Position numbers and translations under genes: made by a program. Positions 16,841-25,707 of a stretch of 25,707 bases of DNA are shown here, piece after piece. Under the pieces are notes generated by a model that was given only the letters and a program-made list of their open reading frames with translations, was not told the origin of the DNA and made no database searches. The DNA comes from a virus, in the IMG/VR virus record IMGVR_UViG_3300041402_000160, positions 1 to 25,707 of that record; one strand, 5' to 3'. Position 1 is the stretch's first letter. Each line of letters starts with the position of its first letter.

Positions 16841-16984
16841 TTACGTGACACGCCCATCCACCGAGTCAGGCAACAAATCCCTCAGCTTCCGGCACCGCAC
16901 AGGCCCAAGACCAAAATTGTAGTCTTGCCTTCGGTCCAACTCGCTCAAGGATCCGCGTGCTAGCTCCCCAGAGCGATCCATCAT
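16841..16984 (-). CDS. Possible small protein (47 aa) between tail tube and chaperone
   Basis: Two adjacent ATG codons (16982-16984, 16979-16981) overlap or follow the tail tube TGA, and GGAG lies about five bases upstream, inside the tube gene's last codons. The ORF ends at TAA 16841-16843, leaving only 39 bases before the chaperone start. The product begins MMDRSGELARGSLSELDRRQ and ends LLPDSVDGRVT; it is charged and soluble, with no recognised motif. The coupled junction is like that of the real genes around it. Its short length and lack of family mean it could still be a chance ORF in a leader segment. Confidence 0.45.
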   Translation of the reverse strand: MMDRSGELARGSLSELDRRQDYNFGLGPVRCRKLRDLLPDSVDGRVT

Positions 16985-18180
16985 CAAGTCTCCGTGCAGA
17001 TCGTGATCATCGTGGCATCCTTGACGGGTGTTCCCGGCTCCACCCCAACCTGGAACGGGATGGTTTCGATCATTGCCCCATCGGCTCCGAGAGGAGCGTC
17101 AGCAGCGGTGAACTTGAGCTTGGGAATGAAGATGCTCAATGCGCCCTTGGGAGACCCAAGAGGCTCCTCCAACAGAACCTGAAGTTCAAACTCAGTCTCC
17201 GCATCGAAGGCAGTGACCCGCGACAGATCCGATCTCACGATGGAGATGGAGCCGCTGATCACGGACCTTCCGTCAAACACATCCGGAGTGACCGTGGAAC
17301 CGATCACCGGAAGTCCAGCCATCCCGAGGCCAAGCTCCAGGTTGAAGGCAGTCCCTGTGACCAGGAACGCACCGCCCAAGGAGATCTGGGCATCCACGAA
17401 CACCAACCCAATCGAGGTGTCCAGAGATGGGGTGTCATAGAAAGGAGAGGCGCCAGAGAGCAAAGGAGTCTGGGAGGCCCCGACAACCGGCAGGTCAATC
17501 GTGGCCATTCCATCCGGGCTTCCCGTGATGGTCATACCATCCCAACGGCAACCGCCAAAGAGCAGCGACTGGTCGATGTCAGCGAAGTATTCCTCAAGCG
17601 TGAAGCTCCGGCGCGTTGGAGTCGCCGCATTGGTGATCTTCTTGAGGATGGTGAGGGTGAAGGTGGCATCCGGAGCCGCATCGACAACCAACGGATCTCC
17701 CACCAGGGTGAGGGTCGAGGCCGTCACATCCAACACCAGGAGATTGATGTCGTTGTTAGCAGGAGTCGAGTGGCCAGTGAGCCTGACGGCATCCCCAACC
17801 TTCACTCCCTCGGTGATCCAAGATCCCCCAGCCGCGATGATGGTACTCGTGGTAGTGGTGATCGAGGTCATGGCTGCTTCGGTGATCAATACCTCTGGCA
17901 CAAACGTGCTTCTCAGCACGGCCTCGAAAATGTCATCGAAGCTATTGACCGACATATCGCACAGATAGTTTCCGCCCACCGACCGGCTCCCAAGCCGAGC
18001 AATTGGCGTAAGCAGATCTGACCGCAGCTCACCAGGCAAGATCGTTGGTGCCGCGAGTTGAAGCCCAGGCGTTGGATTCAACCTCAGCCGTCTCCCTCCC
18101 GTGACAGGTGCTGGGGGCTCATTGAAGAGAGACTCCTCCTTGTAAGCCACCAGGACGTTTTGTCCAGTCTGTTCCGGCAT
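16984..18180 (-). CDS. Major tail tube protein
   Basis: This gene encodes 398 residues. ATG 18178-18180 follows GGAGGA about ten bases upstream. The pattern matches the siphophage tail tube family: VLVAYKEESLFNEPPAP at the start, then ELRSDLLTPIARLGSRSVGG, then a pre-insert strand, and TRRSFTLEEYFADIDQSLLF followed by GGCRWDGMTITGSPDG. These polymerise into the tube that encloses the tape measure. Residues about 106-180 form an inserted beta module (IIAAGGSWITEGVKVGD, ANNDINLLVL, STLTLVGDP) related to the insert in the tail terminator gene just upstream. Such inserts usually project from the tube surface. The final part is beta-rich. The gene lies directly before the chaperone region, as expected. 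Confidence 0.88.
   Translation of the reverse strand: MPEQTGQNVLVAYKEESLFNEPPAPVTGGRRLRLNPTPGLQLAAPTILPGELRSDLLTPIARLGSRSVGGNYLCDMSVNSFDDIFEAVLRSTFVPEVLITEAAMTSITTTTSTIIAAGGSWITEGVKVGDAVRLTGHSTPANNDINLLVLDVTASTLTLVGDPLVVDAAPDATFTLTILKKITNAATPTRRSFTLEEYFADIDQSLLFGGCRWDGMTITGSPDGMATIDLPVVGASQTPLLSGASPFYDTPSLDTSIGLVFVDAQISLGGAFLVTGTAFNLELGLGMAGLPVIGSTVTPDVFDGRSVISGSISIVRSDLSRVTAFDAETEFELQVLLEEPLGSPKGALSIFIPKLKFTAADAPLGADGAMIETIPFQVGVEPGTPVKDATMITICTET
17641..17865 (-). repeat. Inserted beta module in tail tube gene (copy 2)
   Basis: Residues 106-180 of the tube protein align with residues 29-102 of the terminator: AAGGSWITEGVKVGDAVRLT against RTSGSFIDDLYAAGMEVLPA, PANNDINLLVLDVTASTLTL against GANNALAVVKVVDALELTL. 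The relation is at protein level; the bases have diverged. Confidence 0.65.
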
Positions 18181-18198: not shown

Positions 18199-18876
18199 TT
18201 ACGGGTTGATGGTTCGGATCCTGAGCGGGATCGTCACCGGCACGGTGGCCCACCCTGGTTTCAGTTGAAGAATTTGGCCCCTGAAAGGACCGGGATTGGT
18301 ACGGACTCTGACGATGTCTCCATTGGTTAGGGTCATAGCAGTCCTGGGAGCAAAAAGGCTCATCAGGGCATCTCCATATAGGTTCGCTGCTTCCGGTCCA
18401 GTATCGGCTGGCAGATAGAACCTCACAAGGTACAGGGGATCCCATTGGATGTCCCCTCCTGGGCCTATGGTAATCTGTTCAGTATTGGCCGGCAGAAAGT
18501 GCTCTTCCACGTATGGCTTATCTTGGTCTGGAGTGAACTCGATATTCTCAGGCGCAATCCGGGAGGGGAGGCCCACGGTGATTGACTTACCACCCGCAGC
18601 AGCCTCCGTCTCCATCGGCCTATCGAGGGTCAGCTCAAGAGCATCGACCACCTTGACCACCGCCAGAGCGTTATTGGCTCCATCTGAGAATCCTGCTGGG
18701 AGGACTTCCATCCCCGCAGCATACAAATCATCGATGAAGGATCCCGAGGTGCGGACAATCTTTCCAAAGGGAGTCCCAGCGACCACTGAGAGAGAAGTTG
18801 CTGGCGTCCCACTCAGATCGAGAGTCACCAATCGGTCTCTGAGGGCCTGTAGAGTTTCAAATTGATTTACGGGCAT
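18199..18876 (-). CDS. Tail terminator protein with inserted beta module
   Basis: This gene encodes 225 residues; ATG 18874-18876 overlaps the preceding TGA (TGATG). The backbone resembles small tail terminator proteins: an N-terminal helix (FETLQALRDRLVTLDLSG), then IAPENIEFTPDQDKPYVEEH, YLVRFYLPADTGPEAANLYG, DALMSLFAPRTAMTLTNGD and the ending GWATVPVTIPLRIRT. This fold caps the tail tube and joins it to the head. Unlike a standard terminator of about 130-150 residues, this one carries about 75 extra residues (29-102) between the first helix and the first conserved strand. The insert resembles the module in the tail tube protein. The order completion-terminator-tube is canonical. Confidence 0.82.
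   Translation of the reverse strand: MPVNQFETLQALRDRLVTLDLSGTPATSLSVVAGTPFGKIVRTSGSFIDDLYAAGMEVLPAGFSDGANNALAVVKVVDALELTLDRPMETEAAAGGKSITVGLPSRIAPENIEFTPDQDKPYVEEHFLPANTEQITIGPGGDIQWDPLYLVRFYLPADTGPEAANLYGDALMSLFAPRTAMTLTNGDIVRVRTNPGPFRGQILQLKPGWATVPVTIPLRIRTINP
18571..18792 (-). repeat. Inserted beta module in tail terminator gene (copy 1)
   Basis: Residues 29-102 of the terminator (with SGSFIDDLYAAGMEV, FSDGANNALAVVKVVDALEL and a closing SITVGLP) interrupt the terminator backbone and match the module at 17641-17865. Confidence 0.65.
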
Positions 18877-19256
18877 CAGAGAGCCCTCACTTCACGAGCA
18901 GCAGCCCTGACCAACTTTTGGTATCCAGCACGAGTCAACTTCACGCTATGGAATCCTCCCACTTCAGATCTCAAAGTCAATTGATTCCCGGTCCTCAGGT
19001 CCACTTGCTCCTCGATACCTCTCGCATAGATGATTGGGGTTGTGGTCGAGGCCAAGAACAGATCGAGGAATGAAAGCTGCCATGAATTCTTCAATTGGCC
19101 TCCGCCAACCGTGGCGACCGGCTGGCCAGGACTCCCTGTGACTTTGCTCCCTTCTTTGATGCTGGTATGCATCCCATTGGCCACATGGAGGAATATGAAT
19201 TTCTGTTTGATGACCGTCTTGGCCACGAACCTCGCAATGTCTCCTTGGAAGGTCAT
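18876..19256 (-). CDS. Tail completion (neck) protein, HK97 gp10-like
   Basis: This gene encodes 126 residues. The start is taken at ATG 19254-19256, which overlaps the previous stop as ATGA; the frame extends upstream but only inside the preceding gene. The product begins MTFQGDIARFVAKTVIKQKF and has GGGQLKNSWQLSFLD, the typical TGxLrnSW-like segment of HK97 gp10-type tail-completion proteins. A basic C-terminal helix follows (KLTRAGYQKLVRAAAREVRAL). These proteins sit between the head-closure ring and the tail terminator. Gene order (stopper-like, completion, terminator, tube) agrees with this. No anomaly is seen. Confidence 0.78.
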   Translation of the reverse strand: MTFQGDIARFVAKTVIKQKFIFLHVANGMHTSIKEGSKVTGSPGQPVATVGGGQLKNSWQLSFLDLFLASTTTPIIYARGIEEQVDLRTGNQLTLRSEVGGFHSVKLTRAGYQKLVRAAAREVRAL

Positions 19257-22200
19257 AGCGACACCACAACTTTGCTGATGATCGTTCCACCATCCGGAGC
19301 TATCCTGCGAATCCATCGAGTGGTGTAGATGATGTTACCCCAATCGACCTTCATATCCACGCTTGGGAATTCACCAAACGTATTCCCGGCAAAGAGGAGT
19401 GACACCGTGTCACGTTCCACGAGTCGCAATTGCTCGTACATCTTCTTGTTGCCGCGAGTCCTTATGGCCTGACCGGAGACGGAGACCTGAGAGATTGTGC
19501 TCAGCCCAGTCTCAAACGTGTACACGCGTTTGTCGTCCGTGAACGTCACGGGCCTCCCGGCCTTGGTGAGTTCTGAGAGCGCTTGCGCATGATCGTCAAG
19601 GAACGTGTCGCCAGTCAGGACTTGGACGCCAGCGTCTTGGAGGGTGATCCTGATGAAGGCGATTATGGTGACCGCATCGGGCGCAAGTAGCTCGATGTCA
19701 GCGACAACGTGGTTCAGTCCTCGCCAAATCAGGTAGTCCCCTATGTCAGGGAAACTTCCATACTCAGTCGGCGCAAACAGCAGCGTTGGGTCCTCGGTGA
19801 TGACGAGAGTCTCACCCTCATATCTGAAGGGCCTCCCGGAGGTCTCGATGGCCTTGCCGTCTACAGTCGTGGCGCTGAGTCCCGAGACCCCTGGGTTGAG
19901 TGAGTAGGTTGGATTCTGATTCGTGAACAGAACAGACGTTCCATTCTTGGTCAGATCCGCAAAGGCCCTCGCATGATCGGCCTCATACTTGCCCACCAAA
20001 GGCAGGATGTCAGGGGTGAACACGCTCAGAGCTATAGAGCCGAATGCGATGCCAGCCGATGCAGCGGTGCCAAACGCTCCCTCCGTCGCTTCAGCGCTGC
20101 CAAAGGCTATCCCTGCGCTTTCAGAGGCCACAGCCGTTAGAACAGATCCTGCAACGCTGCCAAATCCGATCCCTGCCGACTCCGAGGCCACGATGGCGCT
20201 GACGTCTGCCGTGGACCCGAATGCGATCCCAGCGGTCTCCGAGGCAAGAGCACCGAGGGTCGCTTGGGCATCGGACCCAAGAGCTATCCCAGAGGACTCT
20301 GAGGCTGTCCCTGTCAGGGCAGTGAAGGGAGTCGAGCCGAATGCGATCCCACTCGACTCCGAGGCCACAGCCTGGAGTGTAGCATCCTCGGTTGATCCAA
20401 ACCCGATCCCAGCCGTCTCAGATGCGGCAAACGCCTGGGTGGCGAGAGCTACTGACCCAAACGCTATCCCACTCGACTCTGAGGACTCAAACGCTCCCTC
20501 AGTTACTGGGTTGGAACCAAACTCGATCCCAGCCGTCTCTGAGGCAAGAGCATCGAGGGTTGCTTGGGCGACAGACCCAAACCCAATCCCTGCTTCCTCT
20601 GATGCTAGGCCAAGCGCTGTAGCTTCTTCAGACCCAAATCCTATCCCGGCAACCTCTGAGGCGATGGCGGCCAGAATGGCAGATTCTTCAGACCCAAATT
20701 CAACCCCAGCCGTCTCCGATGATTGAGAGACCTGGGCGGTGGCTGGGGAGGATCCGAATGCGATGCCGGAGGACTCAGCGGCTTCAGCGGCAATGTTGGT
20801 AGACTCGACCGATCCAAATGCTATCCCAGCGGTCTCCGAGGCAAGGAAGTCTCCCTCAACTGCGGCCACCGATCCAAATGCTATCCCAGCGGTCTCCGAG
20901 GCAAGGAGTTGGGCTGTGGTATCCTCTACAGATCCAAACCCGATCCCAGCAACTTCTGAGGCACCGACAGTTGGTGTCGCTAGTGCCACCGATCCAAACG
21001 CTATCCCAGAGGACTCTGAGGCTTGGAAGGAAGCAACCGCAGTCTCCTCCGACCCAAACCCAATCCCAGCAATTTCCGAAGCACCGATCACTGGTGTCGC
21101 TAATGCTACCGATCCAAACGCTATCCCGGCAGTCTCAGAGGATTGGAAGTCTGCTTCAGTGGCAGCGGTGGACCCAAACTCGATCCCTGATGACTCAGAA
21201 GCGATGGCTGCCAAGATCGCAGACTCAAGAGATCCAAACGCTATCCCAGCCGTCTCTGAGGCCAAGCGGTTGAGGACATGAGACTCAACAGAGCCAAAAG
21301 CTATCCCGGAGGATTCAGAGGCCAGAGCATCGAGGGATGATGCTGGTGTAGATCCGAAGGCAATCCCAGCCGTCTCAGAGACCAGGAAGTCACCTTCAAC
21401 GAGAGCCGTGCTACCAAACTCGATCCCAGCCGTCTCAGAGGCCAGGGCATCCAACGTTGTGGACTCGACTGAGCCAATCCCGAGGCCAGCCGATTCTGAG
21501 GCCAGCCTAGTAAGGACATGAGACTCGACAGATCCAAAAGCAATCCCAGCCGTCTCTGAGGCCAGGACCATCGGTGTCGCCAGGGCTACAGATCCGAAAG
21601 CAATCCCAGTCGATTCCGAGGCCAGGAAGTCACCCTCAGAAATAGCGGTGCTACCAAATGCGATCCCAGCCGTCTCTGAGGCGATGGCGGCCAAGACTGT
21701 AGACTCAAGAGATCCAATCCCGATCCCAGCCGATTCTGAGGCCAAGCGATTGAGTACATGGGTCTCGACTGAGCCGAATCCAATGCCGCTCGATTCTGAG
21801 GCTTCAAGAGAAGCAACCGCAGTCGCAACGGAACCAAAAGCAATCCCGGCGATGTTGGAGTTGAAGAAGTCGCCTTCAGCGGTTGCCGGCGTGGAACCAA
21901 GCCCAATTCCGGCAACCGCTGAGGCGGTGGCGGCCAAGGTGGTAGACTCGACCGATCCAAAGGACAGCCCATCAGACTCAGAGGCCCGGAAAGCTGCGAT
22001 AGTATCTGGTGTCGAGCCAAATTCAATTCCGGCTGACTCGAATGCTTCAAGGAACAACTTTGCTACTGCTACAGAGCCAAAAGCTATGCCAGCTGATTCA
22101 GAGGCATCAAAGGAGCCAACAGTAAGGGGAGTGCTTCCAAACCCTATGCCAGCCGACTCCGCAGCAATGAAGATTCCAGCAGTGTCTGGAGTGGATCCGA

Positions 22201-22318
22201 AGGCAAGTCCAGCCGTCTCGGATGCATTGAACGCAGCACCTCCGGCAGCCGCAGTGAAGAGCATAGCTCTCCGTGTAAATTGCGGCCAAAATGGCGCCTT
22301 GCGGAAAACTCCAGACAT
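19253..22318 (-). CDS. Giant repeat protein fused to two head-closure (stopper)-like domains
   Basis: This gene encodes 1021 residues, starting at ATG 22316-22318 after AAGGA and five bases beyond the upstream stop. Residues 32-770 are about 37 tandem repeats of 20 residues with consensus ASE-T/S-AGIAFGS-V/T followed by a variable half. Residues 781-893 and 909-1021 are two related domains: DHARAFADLTKNG / DHAQALSELTKAG, GKAIETSGRPFRYE / GQAIRTRGNKKMYE, LLFAPTEYGSFPDIGDYLIW / LLFAGNTFGEFPSVDMKVDW, LLAPDAVTIIAF / RIAPDGGTIISK. They resemble small phage head-closure proteins, and the next gene is a tail-completion protein, so this is the expected slot. The repeats could form a fibre or collar projecting from the neck. 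No signal peptide or adhesin family is recognised. Confidence 0.8.
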   Translation of the reverse strand: MSGVFRKAPFWPQFTRRAMLFTAAAGGAAFNASETAGLAFGSTPDTAGIFIAAESAGIGFGSTPLTVGSFDASESAGIAFGSVAVAKLFLEAFESAGIEFGSTPDTIAAFRASESDGLSFGSVESTTLAATASAVAGIGLGSTPATAEGDFFNSNIAGIAFGSVATAVASLEASESSGIGFGSVETHVLNRLASESAGIGIGSLESTVLAAIASETAGIAFGSTAISEGDFLASESTGIAFGSVALATPMVLASETAGIAFGSVESHVLTRLASESAGLGIGSVESTTLDALASETAGIEFGSTALVEGDFLVSETAGIAFGSTPASSLDALASESSGIAFGSVESHVLNRLASETAGIAFGSLESAILAAIASESSGIEFGSTAATEADFQSSETAGIAFGSVALATPVIGASEIAGIGFGSEETAVASFQASESSGIAFGSVALATPTVGASEVAGIGFGSVEDTTAQLLASETAGIAFGSVAAVEGDFLASETAGIAFGSVESTNIAAEAAESSGIAFGSSPATAQVSQSSETAGVEFGSEESAILAAIASEVAGIGFGSEEATALGLASEEAGIGFGSVAQATLDALASETAGIEFGSNPVTEGAFESSESSGIAFGSVALATQAFAASETAGIGFGSTEDATLQAVASESSGIAFGSTPFTALTGTASESSGIALGSDAQATLGALASETAGIAFGSTADVSAIVASESAGIGFGSVAGSVLTAVASESAGIAFGSAEATEGAFGTAASAGIAFGSIALSVFTPDILPLVGKYEADHARAFADLTKNGTSVLFTNQNPTYSLNPGVSGLSATTVDGKAIETSGRPFRYEGETLVITEDPTLLFAPTEYGSFPDIGDYLIWRGLNHVVADIELLAPDAVTIIAFIRITLQDAGVQVLTGDTFLDDHAQALSELTKAGRPVTFTDDKRVYTFETGLSTISQVSVSGQAIRTRGNKKMYEQLRLVERDTVSLLFAGNTFGEFPSVDMKVDWGNIIYTTRWIRRIAPDGGTIISKVVVSL
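20009..22225 (-). repeat. Tandem 60-base coding repeats, about 37 copies
   Basis: The unit is 60 bases (20 codons); three copies deviate by one codon. The conserved half encodes ASE(T/S)AGI(A/G/E)FGS and the other half varies. Some neighbours are nearly identical in bases, for example the units around 20809-20848 and 20869-20908, which share a block of roughly 40 bases. Others have diverged, so duplication is both old and recent. Confidence 0.95.
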
Positions 22319-22323
22319 CAGGG

Positions 22324-22572
22324 CTATTCCTTCTCAGCCTCTGCTGTTACTGCCGCCTCAAAATCAACCAGCATCTTCTCAGCCGCTGCTTGCTCAGCTT
22401 TGAAGAATGCGATCTCCTTTTCTCCATCCTTGATGCGCTGTGCGAGAGCATCCTCGCAAGTCTTGACGGAGAGCTTGAAATTGCGGACGGTCTTGGTAAG
22501 GGCTCCACGCTTGGCATCTTCCTGAGTTGCGTATGCCCTCTTGGTGAGTTTCGTTTGTGTATTCTCTGCCAT
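22324..22572 (-). CDS. Small charged helical protein (82 aa)
   Basis: ATG 22570-22572 follows AAGGAGG, a strong ribosome binding site, in a 31-base gap. The product is almost wholly helical and charged: a basic N-terminal half (KLTKRAYATQEDAKRGALTK) and a heptad-like C-terminal half (RIKDGEKEIAFFKAEQAAAE), ending VTAEAEKE. No membrane segment is present. It sits immediately upstream of the repeat-stopper gene, so it could be an assembly or trimerisation partner, but nothing shows this directly. No family is recognised. Confidence 0.75.
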   Translation of the reverse strand: MAENTQTKLTKRAYATQEDAKRGALTKTVRNFKLSVKTCEDALAQRIKDGEKEIAFFKAEQAAAEKMLVDFEAAVTAEAEKE

Positions 22573-22603: not shown

Positions 22604-23188
22604 TCAGGTGGCCGTTGCGGGGAACGTGTAGACCATGTCGAGCGTATCCAACGCTACCATTGGTCTGGACGGGGCGAGAAGATTGGAGGCCCACAGGGTT
22701 CCGGCCAAGTTACCGAATGCCGAAGTCCCTCCACCGATCAACATCATCCCAAACATCGTGAACGTCTGATCTGCCGTGTACTGTGAGACCGGCCCAGCAA
22801 CGTTGTCGATGGACTGTCCCGAGGCAGCGTTGGCGTTGAACGTCTCCCGCACGGCCTCGGCAACGTCTGCCGTGTCGATCTCGGTCACACCCGGAACCGC
22901 AGCCGTGTGAGTGGCCAGCGGAGTGATGTTGTCCACGTAGCCAGTATGGAACCAAACGGTGATCGGAGTCCCCGCATTGATCACCGTTTCGAGAGCGTGG
23001 TTCAGGCCCTCGTTGACGACCAGGTTGGGAGTATGGATCATCTCACCGGTATACTCGTGAACCATGACTCCGTTGCGCTTGTGCCAACGTCCTGGCTGCG
23101 CGCCAAACTTGCCGGAGAAGCGCTGACGCGCTGCCTCGACCTCTTGCGCCGTCATATCGAATCGGCGCTGAATCTCCACTGTCCTCAT
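22604..23188 (-). CDS. Virion structural protein, unknown neck-region role (194 aa)
   Basis: The start is placed at ATG 23186-23188, because GGGGAGGA lies just upstream (about 23196-23203); a longer frame from 23254 lacks such a site. The N-terminus (MRTVEIQRRFDMTAQEVEAA) is helical. A beta-rich part then resembles a widespread phage structural family: NLVVNEGLNHALETVI, TVWFHTGYVDNITPLATHT, then TMFGMMLIGGGTSAFGNLAG and a C-terminal hydrophobic strand (LDMVYTFPATAT). Family members are usually of unknown function and lie among head-tail or tail genes. A virion role is inferred from this and from position. Confidence 0.72.
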   Translation of the reverse strand: MRTVEIQRRFDMTAQEVEAARQRFSGKFGAQPGRWHKRNGVMVHEYTGEMIHTPNLVVNEGLNHALETVINAGTPITVWFHTGYVDNITPLATHTAAVPGVTEIDTADVAEAVRETFNANAASGQSIDNVAGPVSQYTADQTFTMFGMMLIGGGTSAFGNLAGTLWASNLLAPSRPMVALDTLDMVYTFPATAT

Positions 23189-23195
23189 GATGCGG

Positions 23196-23205
23196 TCCTC
23201 CCCTT
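23196..23205 (-). promoter_or_regulatory. Ribosome binding site fixing the start at 23188
   Basis: AAGGGGAGGA on the minus strand ends seven bases before ATG 23186-23188 and decides this start over the longer in-frame one. Confidence 0.65.
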
Positions 23206-23216
23206 GGTGGTGATGG

Positions 23217-23708
23217 TTAAAGCTCCCTGATCCAAGCTGTCCCTTCTGCGACAATATCGGTGGTAGGTGGAACCAAAAGCCTGACCACTATGAACTCATT
23301 GATGGCCGATGAATCTCCTTTCGCTCGCAACTCTGGAATCGGCAGATACAACATCGTCTGGCGGATGTTCCAAACCTCCGCGTCAATAATTCTCTCCACC
23401 CCTGTTGACGCTGGAGTCGTATTTCCAAACTCGCAATCGACCCGAGAGAGGGCATCCCTGGGATCGAGTTTAGTGGGAATGATTACAGTCCCTCCAGATC
23501 CAGTGACCAGATGCCCACGGATGATATTGATCGGCAGACCTTCCTCTTCAGCATCTCCAAAATCAGATCTCTGAGAGAGCTTGAATCCAACCAACTCGAA
23601 AGCATCGCTGGAAGGAGCCTGGAATTGAAACAGATCTTGAATGCCATCCGCATTGGCGATGGTATAGCCCGTGAATGGAACTGCAAAAAGACCTCTGGAT
23701 AGGCTCAT
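23217..23708 (-). CDS. Hypothetical structural protein (163 aa)
   Basis: ATG 23706-23708 has AAGGA about nine bases upstream. The product begins MSLSRGLFAVPFTGYTIANA and is beta-rich: LFQFQAPSSDAFELVGFKLS, INIIRGHLVTGSGGTVIIP, EVWNIRQTMLYLPIPELRAK and a C-terminal strand pair. The layout suggests a small capsid- or neck-associated beta protein that is often annotated only as hypothetical in phages. It contains TKLDPRDALSRV, whose DPRDAL-R core also appears twice in the small gene just upstream. No catalytic motif is evident. Confidence 0.7.
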   Translation of the reverse strand: MSLSRGLFAVPFTGYTIANADGIQDLFQFQAPSSDAFELVGFKLSQRSDFGDAEEEGLPINIIRGHLVTGSGGTVIIPTKLDPRDALSRVDCEFGNTTPASTGVERIIDAEVWNIRQTMLYLPIPELRAKGDSSAINEFIVVRLLVPPTTDIVAEGTAWIREL

Positions 23709-23712
23709 GACT

Positions 23713-23889
23713 TCACATCCTTATGTGGGGAAATGGTCGAAGCATCAGCGGCATCCTTGGGACTGAGCTTTTGAGTTCTTTGTCCTCTTGGGTCCGGAGG
23801 AAAGCGTCACGCGGATCCGCAGGACCCGAATTGGCCTGGACCTTGTCCAGTTGGGTCCGGAGAAGCGCATCACGCGGATCTATAGTCAT
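23713..23889 (-). CDS. Small gene with tandem DPRDA repeats, possibly frameshifted
   Basis: ATG 23887-23889 overlaps the upstream TGA (ATGA) and has GAGGAG about six to seven bases upstream, so initiation is credible. The product starts MTIDPRDALLRTQLDKVQAN and has a second copy DPRDAFLRTQEDK at residues 25-37, 21 codons later. Read straight on, it ends with an odd Met/Pro/Arg-rich tail at codon 58. If one base is added in the AAAA run (23769-23772), the frame becomes KLSPKDAADASTISPHKDVK and ends overlapping the next ATG, like other genes here. That suggests a base missing in assembly, a recent mutation, or recoding. The function is unknown. Confidence 0.55.
   Translation of the reverse strand: MTIDPRDALLRTQLDKVQANSGPADPRDAFLRTQEDKELKSSVPRMPLMLRPFPHIRM
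23779..23880 (-). repeat. Tandem 39-base coding repeat with 63-base spacing
   Basis: The units at 23842-23880 and 23779-23817 encode DPRDALLRTQLDK and DPRDAFLRTQEDK. They are nearly identical in bases (GATCCGCGTGA then CTCCGGACCCAA), so the duplication is fairly recent. Confidence 0.75.
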
Positions 23890-24836
23890 GCGGCACTCCT
23901 CAACGGTTTGCCCGCCAGGATCCCTTCTCCAGCCACGGTGAGATCGACGGCACCTCCACCTTGGGTCAGGGAGAGCGACAGAGCGTTGCCGCTCTGGCTT
24001 ATCACAAAGTAGATTTGGTCCACTACAAGGCCCGTTGGAAGCGCAGGGGCTCCGGCCTGGTAAACTTGGACCTCATCATCGTTTGCGAGACCATGGCCCA
24101 TCCCCAGAGTCAACACATCGTCCGTCTCTCCATTGAAGACGATCAGTGGCGGGCCAATGTCCATAACCTGAGGCTCAACATCCTTGATGGTCGCGATGCG
24201 ATACGTGGCCCTTGGGATGTCCTCCGTGTAAGCTCCCGTTGAGACGTTGGACGTTCCAAAAGCGACCAGCGTCAGAACCTCCGGAGCTTCACTCATGCGC
24301 CGGTAGATTTGATACTCAACGCTGCCCAATGGATTCTTCTTGCGGTCCCGAGTGACCCCTGCGACGGTGTACAGAATCTGGACAAATTCAACATCGGCCT
24401 CGCCAACCTTGATCTTGGAGCCAGACCCATTCTCAAAGACCCTGATGGCGAACCGGCCACCGCCAAGATCAGCGAGGTCTGCGATGAAGGCTGCATCAAG
24501 GACCGTGTCCTCATCTCCGGCCCCAAGGATCACTGCCGTCGTGATCCCGTTTGTATCATCAATCGTGTCAATGTCGGAGTATGGCGCGAGCCGGAGAGTG
24601 CCCGTGGTCATGGCCTGGTTGATGCCGAGCCGGAGAGTATGGGTCCCAGCAGGATCGAGCGTTGCGGGATCGAGGAACACTTCAACCCGGAGCCCCTGGC
24701 CAGCCTTGACCTCAACACACGAGGTTGCCGAGGTGTCATCGGTCAGACATGCCGTGATATCAACCAGCGCTCCATCATCGCCAGTCTCTGTCGCAAGGGC
24801 AACTTGCTCGCCCGCATCAATATCGACAAACGCCAT
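23886..24836 (-). CDS. Multi-domain beta-rich structural protein (316 aa)
   Basis: The ATG at 24834-24836 directly follows the previous stop. Three parts are visible. An N-terminal beta domain covers about residues 1-160 (VDITACLTDDTSATSCVEV, GLRVEVFLDPATLD). A middle segment at 165-225 (PLGSVEYQIYRR, STGAYTEDIPRATYRIATIK) has the style of a carboxypeptidase-regulatory or Ig-like carbohydrate-binding fold. The C-terminal module at about 238-305 (GHGLANDDEVQVYQAGAPAL, PTGLVVDQIYFVIS, GGGAVDLTVAGEG) is a common add-on in phage structural proteins. It could be a decoration or neck protein. It lies between connector-type genes and the stopper-like gene. Confidence 0.68.
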   Translation of the reverse strand: MAFVDIDAGEQVALATETGDDGALVDITACLTDDTSATSCVEVKAGQGLRVEVFLDPATLDPAGTHTLRLGINQAMTTGTLRLAPYSDIDTIDDTNGITTAVILGAGDEDTVLDAAFIADLADLGGGRFAIRVFENGSGSKIKVGEADVEFVQILYTVAGVTRDRKKNPLGSVEYQIYRRMSEAPEVLTLVAFGTSNVSTGAYTEDIPRATYRIATIKDVEPQVMDIGPPLIVFNGETDDVLTLGMGHGLANDDEVQVYQAGAPALPTGLVVDQIYFVISQSGNALSLSLTQGGGAVDLTVAGEGILAGKPLRSAA

Positions 24837-25220
24837 CTATCGGTTCCGGCTCCGAGTGCGACTCATGATCCCAGCGAAGTCAGCATCAAACTCACCGGTG
24901 AAGACTCGATGGATGTATTGGATGGGAGGAGTCTCTGGCTGGCGCGCTGTAGTGGCTAATGGAGACACCTCTCGATTCATCACGACATCATCAACGTCCC
25001 AGCCCATCAAACCCCAGTGAGGCCCAGGCCGATTATCGAGCAACACGGCATAGAAGTCAAACCCAGACTTCTCTTGGAGAAGCAGTCTCCCGGAGGGCTC
25101 TTGGGTAGAGGGAGCAAACAGGCCGATCCAAAGGACCCCAGTCTGTACGAACTGGTTGACCTCGCCAACAGGTCGAGTCACGATTGACTCATCGGTGTAC
25201 ACGATCCGAATTTCCATCAT
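24837..25220 (-). CDS. Hypothetical neck-region protein (127 aa)
   Basis: The ATG at 25218-25220 overlaps the TGA of the connector gene (TGATG); a TTG at 25223 is an alternative start. The product begins MMEIRIVYTDESIVTRPV, contains VLWIGLFAPSTQEPSGRLLL and DFYAVLLDNRPGPHWGLMGW, and ends in basic residues (RTRSRNR). There is no signal peptide. Tight coupling to the connector gene suggests a neck or head-completion role. I do not recognise the family, and a role in the neck is an inference from position. Confidence 0.7.
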   Translation of the reverse strand: MMEIRIVYTDESIVTRPVGEVNQFVQTGVLWIGLFAPSTQEPSGRLLLQEKSGFDFYAVLLDNRPGPHWGLMGWDVDDVVMNREVSPLATTARQPETPPIQYIHRVFTGEFDADFAGIMSRTRSRNR

Positions 25221-25707
25221 CAAGCCCTCAGAATCTCAAGAGATCCAGCACCACTCGCTGAGTCGTCCAACAGAGGGGTGATCTCTCGGATGACCGTTGG
25301 ATAGCGATCAAGCCCCTCAGCGCCACCGGTGGTTCCTCCCGGAGAAAAATACTCAGTCTCCAAAACGTCCACCTTGGTCCTCTTGATACCGGCGCTGGGG
25401 TCAATAGCTGCCACGTCCACAGATCCGGACTTGATGAACTCCAAAGCATATTCCGCAGTGGCGTTCTGGATCCGGTCAGGGATCTCGTCATCAGGATAGA
25501 ATGAGATGCTTCCAAAGCCATCGTCCGAGAGTGGCGTGTCCGGATCTATGGCTTCAAACCTCGGCCATGAGAGCGCCTGGACCTCATCAGTCCTTTGGCC
25601 GATCCACGCGAGTCGAGTCAACTCACGGGTGGCCTCCATGAGGGCTCGACTCCTGTCATCAGGATCCGCTGCCGCCCAAGCCGACGCATTGAGCCGATCC
25701 TCAAGGT
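25220..25707 (-). CDS. Head-tail connector, DnaT-like (5' end cut by window)
   Basis: The frame is open to the right window edge, so the true start is outside. The ATG at 25639 is internal, because residues encoded upstream (LEDRLNASAWAAADPDDRSR) fit the family. The visible part has the signature of the DnaT-like phage connector family: RALMEATRELTRLAWIGQRT, QALSWPRFEA, IPDRIQNATAEYALEFIKSG. Such proteins are typically encoded just after the capsid and form the adaptor ring under the portal. A C-terminal segment of about 55 residues follows (TKVDVLETEYFSPGGTTG). The portal, capsid and terminase genes are expected to the right. Confidence 0.82.
   Translation of the reverse strand, partial: LEDRLNASAWAAADPDDRSRALMEATRELTRLAWIGQRTDEVQALSWPRFEAIDPDTPLSDDGFGSISFYPDDEIPDRIQNATAEYALEFIKSGSVDVAAIDPSAGIKRTKVDVLETEYFSPGGTTGGAEGLDRYPTVIREITPLLDDSASGAGSLEILRA

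What the first reader, a model, noticed from the sequence alone, without database searches (positions are those of the whole stretch)
19253..22318. Giant 20-residue repeat tract fused to stopper-like domains: candidate neck fibre
Seen: about 37 copies of a 20-residue unit (consensus ASE-T/S-AGIAFGS) precede two head-closure-like domains, directly upstream of a tail-completion gene. Known: head-closure proteins are normally small, about 100-120 residues, and sit in a ring at the neck. Inferred: the repeats project from the neck as a fibre, collar or whisker, with six or twelve copies per virion. I know of no described stopper protein with such an extension.
Basis: partly seen in the sequence, partly recalled or inferred. 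Interest (0 to 1): 0.88.

Follow-up and report, generated by a model that had tools for sequence, protein, structure and literature searches.

The report
Phage neck plug carrying repeat arm
In this uncultured virus of bacteria, the small protein that plugs the head at the neck is duplicated and fused to a 37-copy repeat arm; related viruses attach many different repeat arms at the same place, so the neck plug looks like a general mounting point for variable surface fibres.

Summary
A 1021-aa minus-strand ORF has exactly 37 units of ~20 aa (33 of 36 spacings are exactly 20), then two head-closure (stopper) domains, supported by PHROG_161 and by structural matches to solved stoppers. It lies in a siphophage neck-tail module. 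It is not a one-off. In over 100 related loci most stoppers are ordinary (100-125 aa, adaptor and stopper genes adjacent), but several lineages fuse differing 20-24-aa repeat arms to one or two stopper domains. Nine others encode an arm protein ending in two copies of the stopper's N-terminal helix, just before a separate helix-less stopper barrel. One relative (L070) carries the same repeat protein unfused at the same locus. Best explanation: a neck-anchored, beta-solenoid-like whisker mounted at the adaptor-stopper junction, in few copies per virion (3 if the tandem stopper forms a pseudo-hexamer, otherwise 6). Presence in virions, solenoid fold and stoichiometry are inferred, not shown. New variant of a known kind.

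The parts
19253..22318 (-). Whole gene: repeat arm fused to two tandem stopper (Hc1) domains, 1021 aa
22229..22318 (-). N-terminal segment, residues 1-30, overlapping the first repeat unit; 83% identical in L003
20036..22252 (-). 37 tandem 20-residue units (residues ~23-761), consensus ...LASESAGIAFGS
   Evidence: DNA-level arrays; unfused homologue in L070
19643..19996 (-). Stopper domain D1 (residues 775-892), helix then beta-barrel
19613..19642 (-). Inter-domain linker, about 10 residues (9-10 in all tandem relatives)
19259..19612 (-). Stopper domain D2 (residues 903-1020), the more typical of the two
   Evidence: 110 bits against 88 for D1
22324..22572 (-). 82-aa, probably helical protein just upstream; conserved in L003 (88%) and L070 (36%)
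22604..23254 (-). Island gene, phrog_8123 (unknown function); homologues precede the repeat protein in L003 and L070
   Evidence: weak match to PDB chain 26la_U 'Structural protein', E 0.0015
23217..25223 (-). Further island genes (163, 316 and 128 aa) between adaptor and stopper; the 316- and 128-aa genes have homologues in L008, the 163-aa gene in L003
25220..25705 (-). Adaptor Ad1 (head-tail connector), cut by the window end
   Evidence: PF20557 E 4e-18, phrog_477 E 1.3e-22
18876..19316 (-). Gene in tail-completion (Ne1) position; by homology with L003 its start may be the ATG at 19256, overlapping the stop of the giant (ATGA)
   Evidence: (weak)
18199..18876 (-). Tail terminator
   Evidence: PF13554 E 8.7e-14, phrog_179
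16984..18180 (-). Tail tube protein
   Evidence: PF18906 E 1.2e-19

Best explanation
The protein is the phage's stopper (head-closure) protein with a neck whisker mounted on it. The two C-terminal Hc1 domains sit in the stopper ring under the 12-fold adaptor. Their N-terminal helices face the adaptor, so the N-terminal 37-repeat arm leaves the particle at the adaptor-stopper junction, near where whiskers attach in other phages. The arm is probably a beta-solenoid rod (about 20 residues per coil; about 18 nm at 4.8 A per coil) and probably serves as a surface or adhesive appendage rather than in sealing DNA. Because each chain carries two stopper domains on a fixed 9-10-residue linker, a ring of six barrels would need only three chains, hence three arms. 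SHOWN: domain identity, repeat periodicity, gene order, recurrence of the arrangement in relatives, the split-helix variant, purifying selection between two contigs. INFERRED: presence in virions, outward projection, solenoid fold, three arms, adhesive role.
For: Stopper identity by profile and fold. No other Hc1 in the window or in L003's 70-kb record. Fused arms with different 20-24-aa repeats in L006, L008, L059, L119. Nine split forms whose arm protein ends in two stopper-helix motifs right before a helix-less barrel. Unfused homologue in the same neighbourhood in L070. The insertion site is the Ad1-Hc1 junction: 38 of 46 loci with a detected Ad1 have the two genes adjacent; the five with a 2.3-6.8-kb gap all carry an arm. 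dN/dS of the repeats ~0.21. Stopper N-terminus contacts the adaptor in SPP1 and R4C (PMC9701221, PMC10276861); whisker density in phage 812 lies round the adaptor and contacts stopper decoration proteins (PMC12886913).
Against: No virion data. Repeat model has pLDDT ~60. L070 keeps the repeat protein unfused, so fusion is not needed for its function. Some arms (L132, L080) lack clear 20-residue periodicity. Relative placement of D1 and D2 is not predicted reliably (pTM 0.40). The split form's helix pair might serve one site (helical hairpin, one arm per barrel) instead of two.
Confidence: 0.6

Rival explanations
1. Stacked or extended neck: the two stopper domains form two stacked rings that lengthen the neck, with six chains per virion; the repeat arms wrap the neck or tail as a collar instead of projecting as fibres.
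For: Fixed 9-10-residue linker also suits stacking; L021 has three tandem stopper domains and no repeats.
Against: In the split forms the duplicated element is only the N-terminal helix, with a single barrel gene, which does not give a second ring; domains per chain (1, 2, 3) all divide six, as one ring would require.
Confidence: 0.2
2. Assembly device: the arm is a chaperone, ruler or capsid clamp that is removed or buried during head-tail joining and is not a surface fibre.
For: Decoration and whisker proteins of phage 812 are proposed to act as assembly chaperones or to reinforce the neck (PMC12886913); the R4C adaptor's extra domain contacts the capsid (PMC10276861).
Against: Arm sequence and length vary strongly between lineages (29 against 37 units between L003 and the window; differing repeats elsewhere), and some arms carry lectin-like-looking, BspA-like (DUF285) or PKD-like domains, more typical of surface appendages.
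Confidence: 0.15
3. Annotation or assembly artefact: repeat gene and stopper gene joined by a lost stop or by chimeric assembly.
For: Metagenomic origin; long antisense open frames over the repeats; the unfused homologue in L070.
Against: Same fusion in two further IMG/VR records (L002, L003), other fusions in L006, L008, L059, L119, dN/dS ~0.2, invariant linker and helix spacing.
Confidence: 0.03

Closest known systems
Head-closure/stopper proteins Hc1 (SPP1 gp16, lambda gpFII, R4C stopper; PHROG_161)
   Same: Domain fold, gene order Ad1-Hc1-x-Tc1, one Hc1 locus per genome, N-terminal helix before the barrel
   Different: Known ones are small single domains (lambda gpFII, R4C with short N-terminal extensions contacting the adaptor); here two domains and a 760-residue repeat arm
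Phage neck whiskers and fibres (T4 fibritin, A-1(L) gp82-gp81-gp80)
   Same: Proposed position at the neck and elongated shape
   Different: Those are separate proteins docked on the adaptor or neck ring (T4 gp13, A-1(L) gp5; PMC12270204, PMC10966104), not the stopper itself; no sequence relation shown
Phage 812 (Herelleviridae) stopper with external beta-sandwich and separate decoration proteins
   Same: A stopper with an extra outer domain; decoration proteins at the adaptor-stopper junction contact putative whiskers (PMC12886913)
   Different: One small inserted domain, no tandem stopper domains, no repeat arm; decoration proteins are separate genes
R4C adaptor with Ig-like attachment domain
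   Same: A neck-ring protein carrying an accessory outer domain (PMC10276861)
   Different: It is on the adaptor, is one Ig-like domain, and contacts the capsid
T5-like/DT57C tail tube
   Same: A trimeric tube ring docks on a six-fold neck ring (PMC10713586); duplicated-domain trimers acting as pseudo-hexamers are the precedent for three chains per ring (latter from my own knowledge)
   Different: Tail tube, not stopper; no repeat arm

Membership tests
Hc1 stopper/head-closure family | Sequence-profile match to known Hc1 | tested here: met
   PHROG_161 E 3.8e-8, two stretches; 88 and 110 bits to an HMM of 31 ordinary stoppers
Hc1 stopper/head-closure family | Stopper beta-barrel fold | tested here: met
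   Top rows are stopper/neck chains: 9gb5_G Z 10.1 rmsd 3.8 over 107; 9l0e_A (T1 stopper) Z 9.5 rmsd 5.5 over 113; SPP1 7z4w_1 Z 7.1 rmsd 4.8 over 101
Hc1 stopper/head-closure family | Position between Ad1 and tail terminator in a Type 1 neck | tested here: met
   Ad1 25220-25705, terminator 18199-18876; unusual in that five genes lie between Ad1 and the stopper
Hc1 stopper/head-closure family | Small single-domain protein (~100-120 aa) | tested here: not met
   1021 aa with two domains. Size is typical, not essential: the domains still belong
Hc1 stopper/head-closure family | Hexameric ring that closes the portal channel | not testable with these tools
   No multimer prediction or virion data available
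Beta-solenoid repeat proteins | Regular coil of about 20 residues with stacked strands | tested here: inconclusive
   Periodic two-strand pattern; best rows are beta-helices (3jqy_B Z 13.7 with rmsd 10.5; 3lyc_A Z 12.8 with rmsd 2.7 over 154), but pLDDT ~60; weak Pfam beta-solenoid match below cut-off
Fibritin/whisker neck fibres | Sequence or fold relation to fibritin or A-1(L) gp80-gp82 | not tested
   No fibritin sequence was compared; only a proposed functional analogy
Gp80 fibre family (PF23140) | Profile match in the window | tested here: inconclusive
   No match in the window (where the control search also found nothing); present in the islands of relatives L008, L069, L131

The most novel reading that the evidence does not exclude
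The stopper's N-terminal helix is a general docking plug for interchangeable neck arms. Phages repeatedly fuse an arm to one or more stopper domains, or move two copies of the helix onto a separate arm protein and leave a helix-less barrel. In the fused tandem form three chains with two barrels each build a pseudo-hexameric stopper bearing three arms; in the split form arm proteins supply the helices in trans.
Probability: 0.35. Interest if true: 0.75.

Novelty: new variant of a known kind. Interest (0 to 1): 0.62.

Why it matters
Necks are usually described as conserved seals, with fibres as separate proteins docked on them. Here the seal itself is the mount, and the mount recurs with differing repeat arms and in a split form whose boundary falls exactly at the helix-barrel junction. 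If true, it defines an attachment plug for neck appendages, predicts unusual symmetry (three arms on a six-fold ring), and explains why some metagenomic stopper genes look giant while others look truncated at the start.

Tried and rejected
A close-relative scan with the C-terminal domains alone, and tblastn against 50,697 cultured-phage records, found nothing, so no cultured relative of this protein is known from these collections. A self-shifted repeat alignment made for folding was re-registered by MAFFT and replaced. One pattern scan used a query whose first residues were a spacer I made up before a real L078 tail; its only relatives were loci already known or another fetch of a known record, and nothing rests on it. 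Very long stopper ORFs in L068, L078, L081, L098 and L122 look like wrong-frame extensions in GC-rich DNA; in L068, L078 and L081 the true upstream gene lies in another frame. An apparent 'adaptor fusion' in L065 looks like the same kind of over-extension. The idea that the window's phrog_8123 protein belongs to the Gp80 fibre family was tested and not supported. The tree does not settle when the duplications happened: one clade for all window/L003, L006 and L008 tandem domains is marginally rejected (p 0.038), window+L003+L006 together is not. The fold search listed no fibritin-like chain, which proves nothing.

Full report
OBSERVATION. The feature lies on the minus strand: ORF 22318-19253, 1021 aa. 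It contains exactly 37 units; 33 of 36 spacings are 20 residues, two 19 and one 21; three unit positions (two Gly, one Ser) are invariant in all 37 copies. Autocorrelation at lag 20 is 0.45 against a shuffled maximum of 0.17. The C-terminus holds two domains, 34% identical to each other in the alignment, that match PHROG_161 head closure Hc1. The window is a 25,707-base IMG/VR record, classed linear.

CONTEXT. Read on the minus strand the genes are: adaptor Ad1 (phrog_477), five island genes, the giant, a gene in the tail-completion position, terminator (PF13554), tube (PF18906), tape measure and tail proteins. This is a Type 1 siphophage neck (Ad1-Hc1-x-Tc1; PMC4362835) with an insertion between Ad1 and Hc1. 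The giant carries the only Hc1 copies found in the window, and L003's 70-kb record has only the homologous pair.

FOLD. A model of six repeats plus both domains (15-row alignment, mean pLDDT 71, most of D2 above 80) shows helix-then-barrel domains. Its best matches are mostly phage stopper and neck chains: phiCD508, T1, FCWL1, Pam3, lambda, 812, R4C, SPP1. A model of eight repeats gives a regular two-strand-per-unit pattern resembling beta-helices, but at pLDDT about 60. At 4.8 A per coil (textbook value), 37 coils would be about 18 nm.

RELATIVES. L002 and L003 (two other IMG/VR records) carry the same protein with 29 units (858 aa); dN/dS is about 0.21 for the repeats and 0.12 and 0.23 for the two domains. 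Scans with tube and terminator alignments gave over 100 loci, some being overlapping fetches of one record; 102 ORFs in them and the window contain an Hc1 domain. Most are ordinary 100-125-aa stoppers. Where Ad1 was detected, Ad1 and Hc1 are adjacent (0-19 nt) in 38 of 46 loci, 124-175 nt apart in three, and 2.3-6.8 kb apart in five; those five (window, L002, L080, L131, L132) all carry an arm protein (arms).

FUSED ARMS. Besides window/L003, fused arms occur in L006 (24-residue repeats after an N-terminal domain, two stopper domains), L059 (24, two; 5' end cut), L008 (20, two) and L119 (21, one stopper domain). Repeat sequences differ between these lineages while the period stays 20-24. L021 has three tandem stopper domains without repeats. 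The linker between tandem stopper domains is 9-10 residues in every case. The tree of stopper domains does not favour one origin of all tandem proteins, though support is modest.

SPLIT ARMS. In nine loci (L064, L068, L075, L078, L080, L081, L131, L132, L137) the gene before the stopper encodes a separate protein (76 to 964 aa, mostly repeat-rich) whose last ~35 residues are two copies of the stopper's own N-terminal helix motif (for example L131: GKYRAEHRSAFADVTAAQGFAAEHASALRDVTEAGV-stop). It is followed, usually with an overlapping stop/start (ATGA, TAATG, TGATG), by a stopper barrel that lacks this helix (MITFTRT...). The two helix motifs are 17 residues apart in 8 of 9, and the chain ends 13 residues after the last H/W in 8 of 9. 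Among 2,621 distinct ORF tails the motif search found nine, all from genes just upstream of a stopper barrel: eight of the above plus L025, a variant with a single helix and one small frame in between. L137 came later from a search of 298 genomes of one phylum with stopper domains only, and showed the same arrangement.

UNFUSED HOMOLOGUE. L070/L071 encode the same repeat family; in L070 a 1085-aa protein with about 50 units aligns to the window's protein at 48% identity over 781 columns. Its neighbourhood is shared (82/95-aa protein 36%, phrog_8123 protein 76%), but it is a separate ORF, with a 114-aa gene between it and a 141-aa stopper. So the repeat protein is a module of this neck island whose physical link to the stopper varies; the fusion in the window suggests where it works.

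MECHANISM. In SPP1 the gp16 N-terminus inserts into the gp15 ring, and in R4C the stopper's N-terminal helix contacts two adaptor subunits (PMC9701221, PMC10276861). An arm attached before this helix would leave the particle at the adaptor-stopper junction. In phage 812, decoration proteins spanning that junction probably attach neck whiskers (PMC12886913). Six stopper subunits per ring are found in SPP1, JBD30 and R4C. Observed stopper domains per chain are 1, 2 and 3, all divisors of six, and the linker length is constant; I therefore favour tandem chains filling one ring (three chains, three arms) over stacked rings, but this is untested. Function as an adhesive whisker is inferred from the variability of the arms; island genes of relatives L008, L069 and L131 include PF23140, 'Podophage GP4 fiber I protein gp80', and their profile matches solved chain 8jou_a.

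NOVELTY. The paper library gave no stopper with a repeat arm and no split stopper, but most subscription papers are not held. The components are known kinds; the combination and its recurrence appear new.

Noticed in passing
L064, L068/L069, L075, L078, L080, L081/L082, L131, L132, L137: Stopper gene split at the helix-barrel boundary: the upstream arm protein ends in two stopper-helix motifs and the barrel is a separate, usually overlapping gene. Nearly invariant spacings (17 and 13 residues).
   Followed up: partly
L070:3594-6848: Stand-alone 1085-aa protein with about 50 units of the same repeat family as the window, same neighbourhood, not fused to the stopper.
   Followed up: yes
L006:1517-3892: A paralogue of the giant stopper protein of L006, with the same N-terminal domain and 24-residue repeats but no stopper domain, encoded just upstream.
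   Followed up: no
L021:1209-2423: Three tandem stopper domains in one 405-aa protein without repeats.
   Followed up: partly
L025:75-1565: Arm protein with BspA-like (DUF285) repeats and a PKD-like domain, ending in a single stopper helix; a small extra frame lies before the helix-less barrel.
   Followed up: partly
window 22229-22318: The giant starts MSGVFRKAPFWPQFTRRAMLFTAAAGG, which by eye resembles a twin-arginine signal; probably chance, but L003 keeps TRRAMLFTAA.
   Followed up: no
window 19989-20726, 20739-21281, 21648-22403 (+): Long antisense open frames over the repeats, by-products of the repeat and codon pattern; an automatic annotation could call them as genes.
   Followed up: no
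L135:4441-5124 (Shewanella phage 3/49): A cultured phage with an unrelated 227-aa gene between Ad1 and the next neck gene, so this site may accept cargo elsewhere too.
   Followed up: no
L065 and L086: Helix-less stopper barrels directly behind Ad1 with no arm protein seen between; where their helix function resides is unclear.
   Followed up: no
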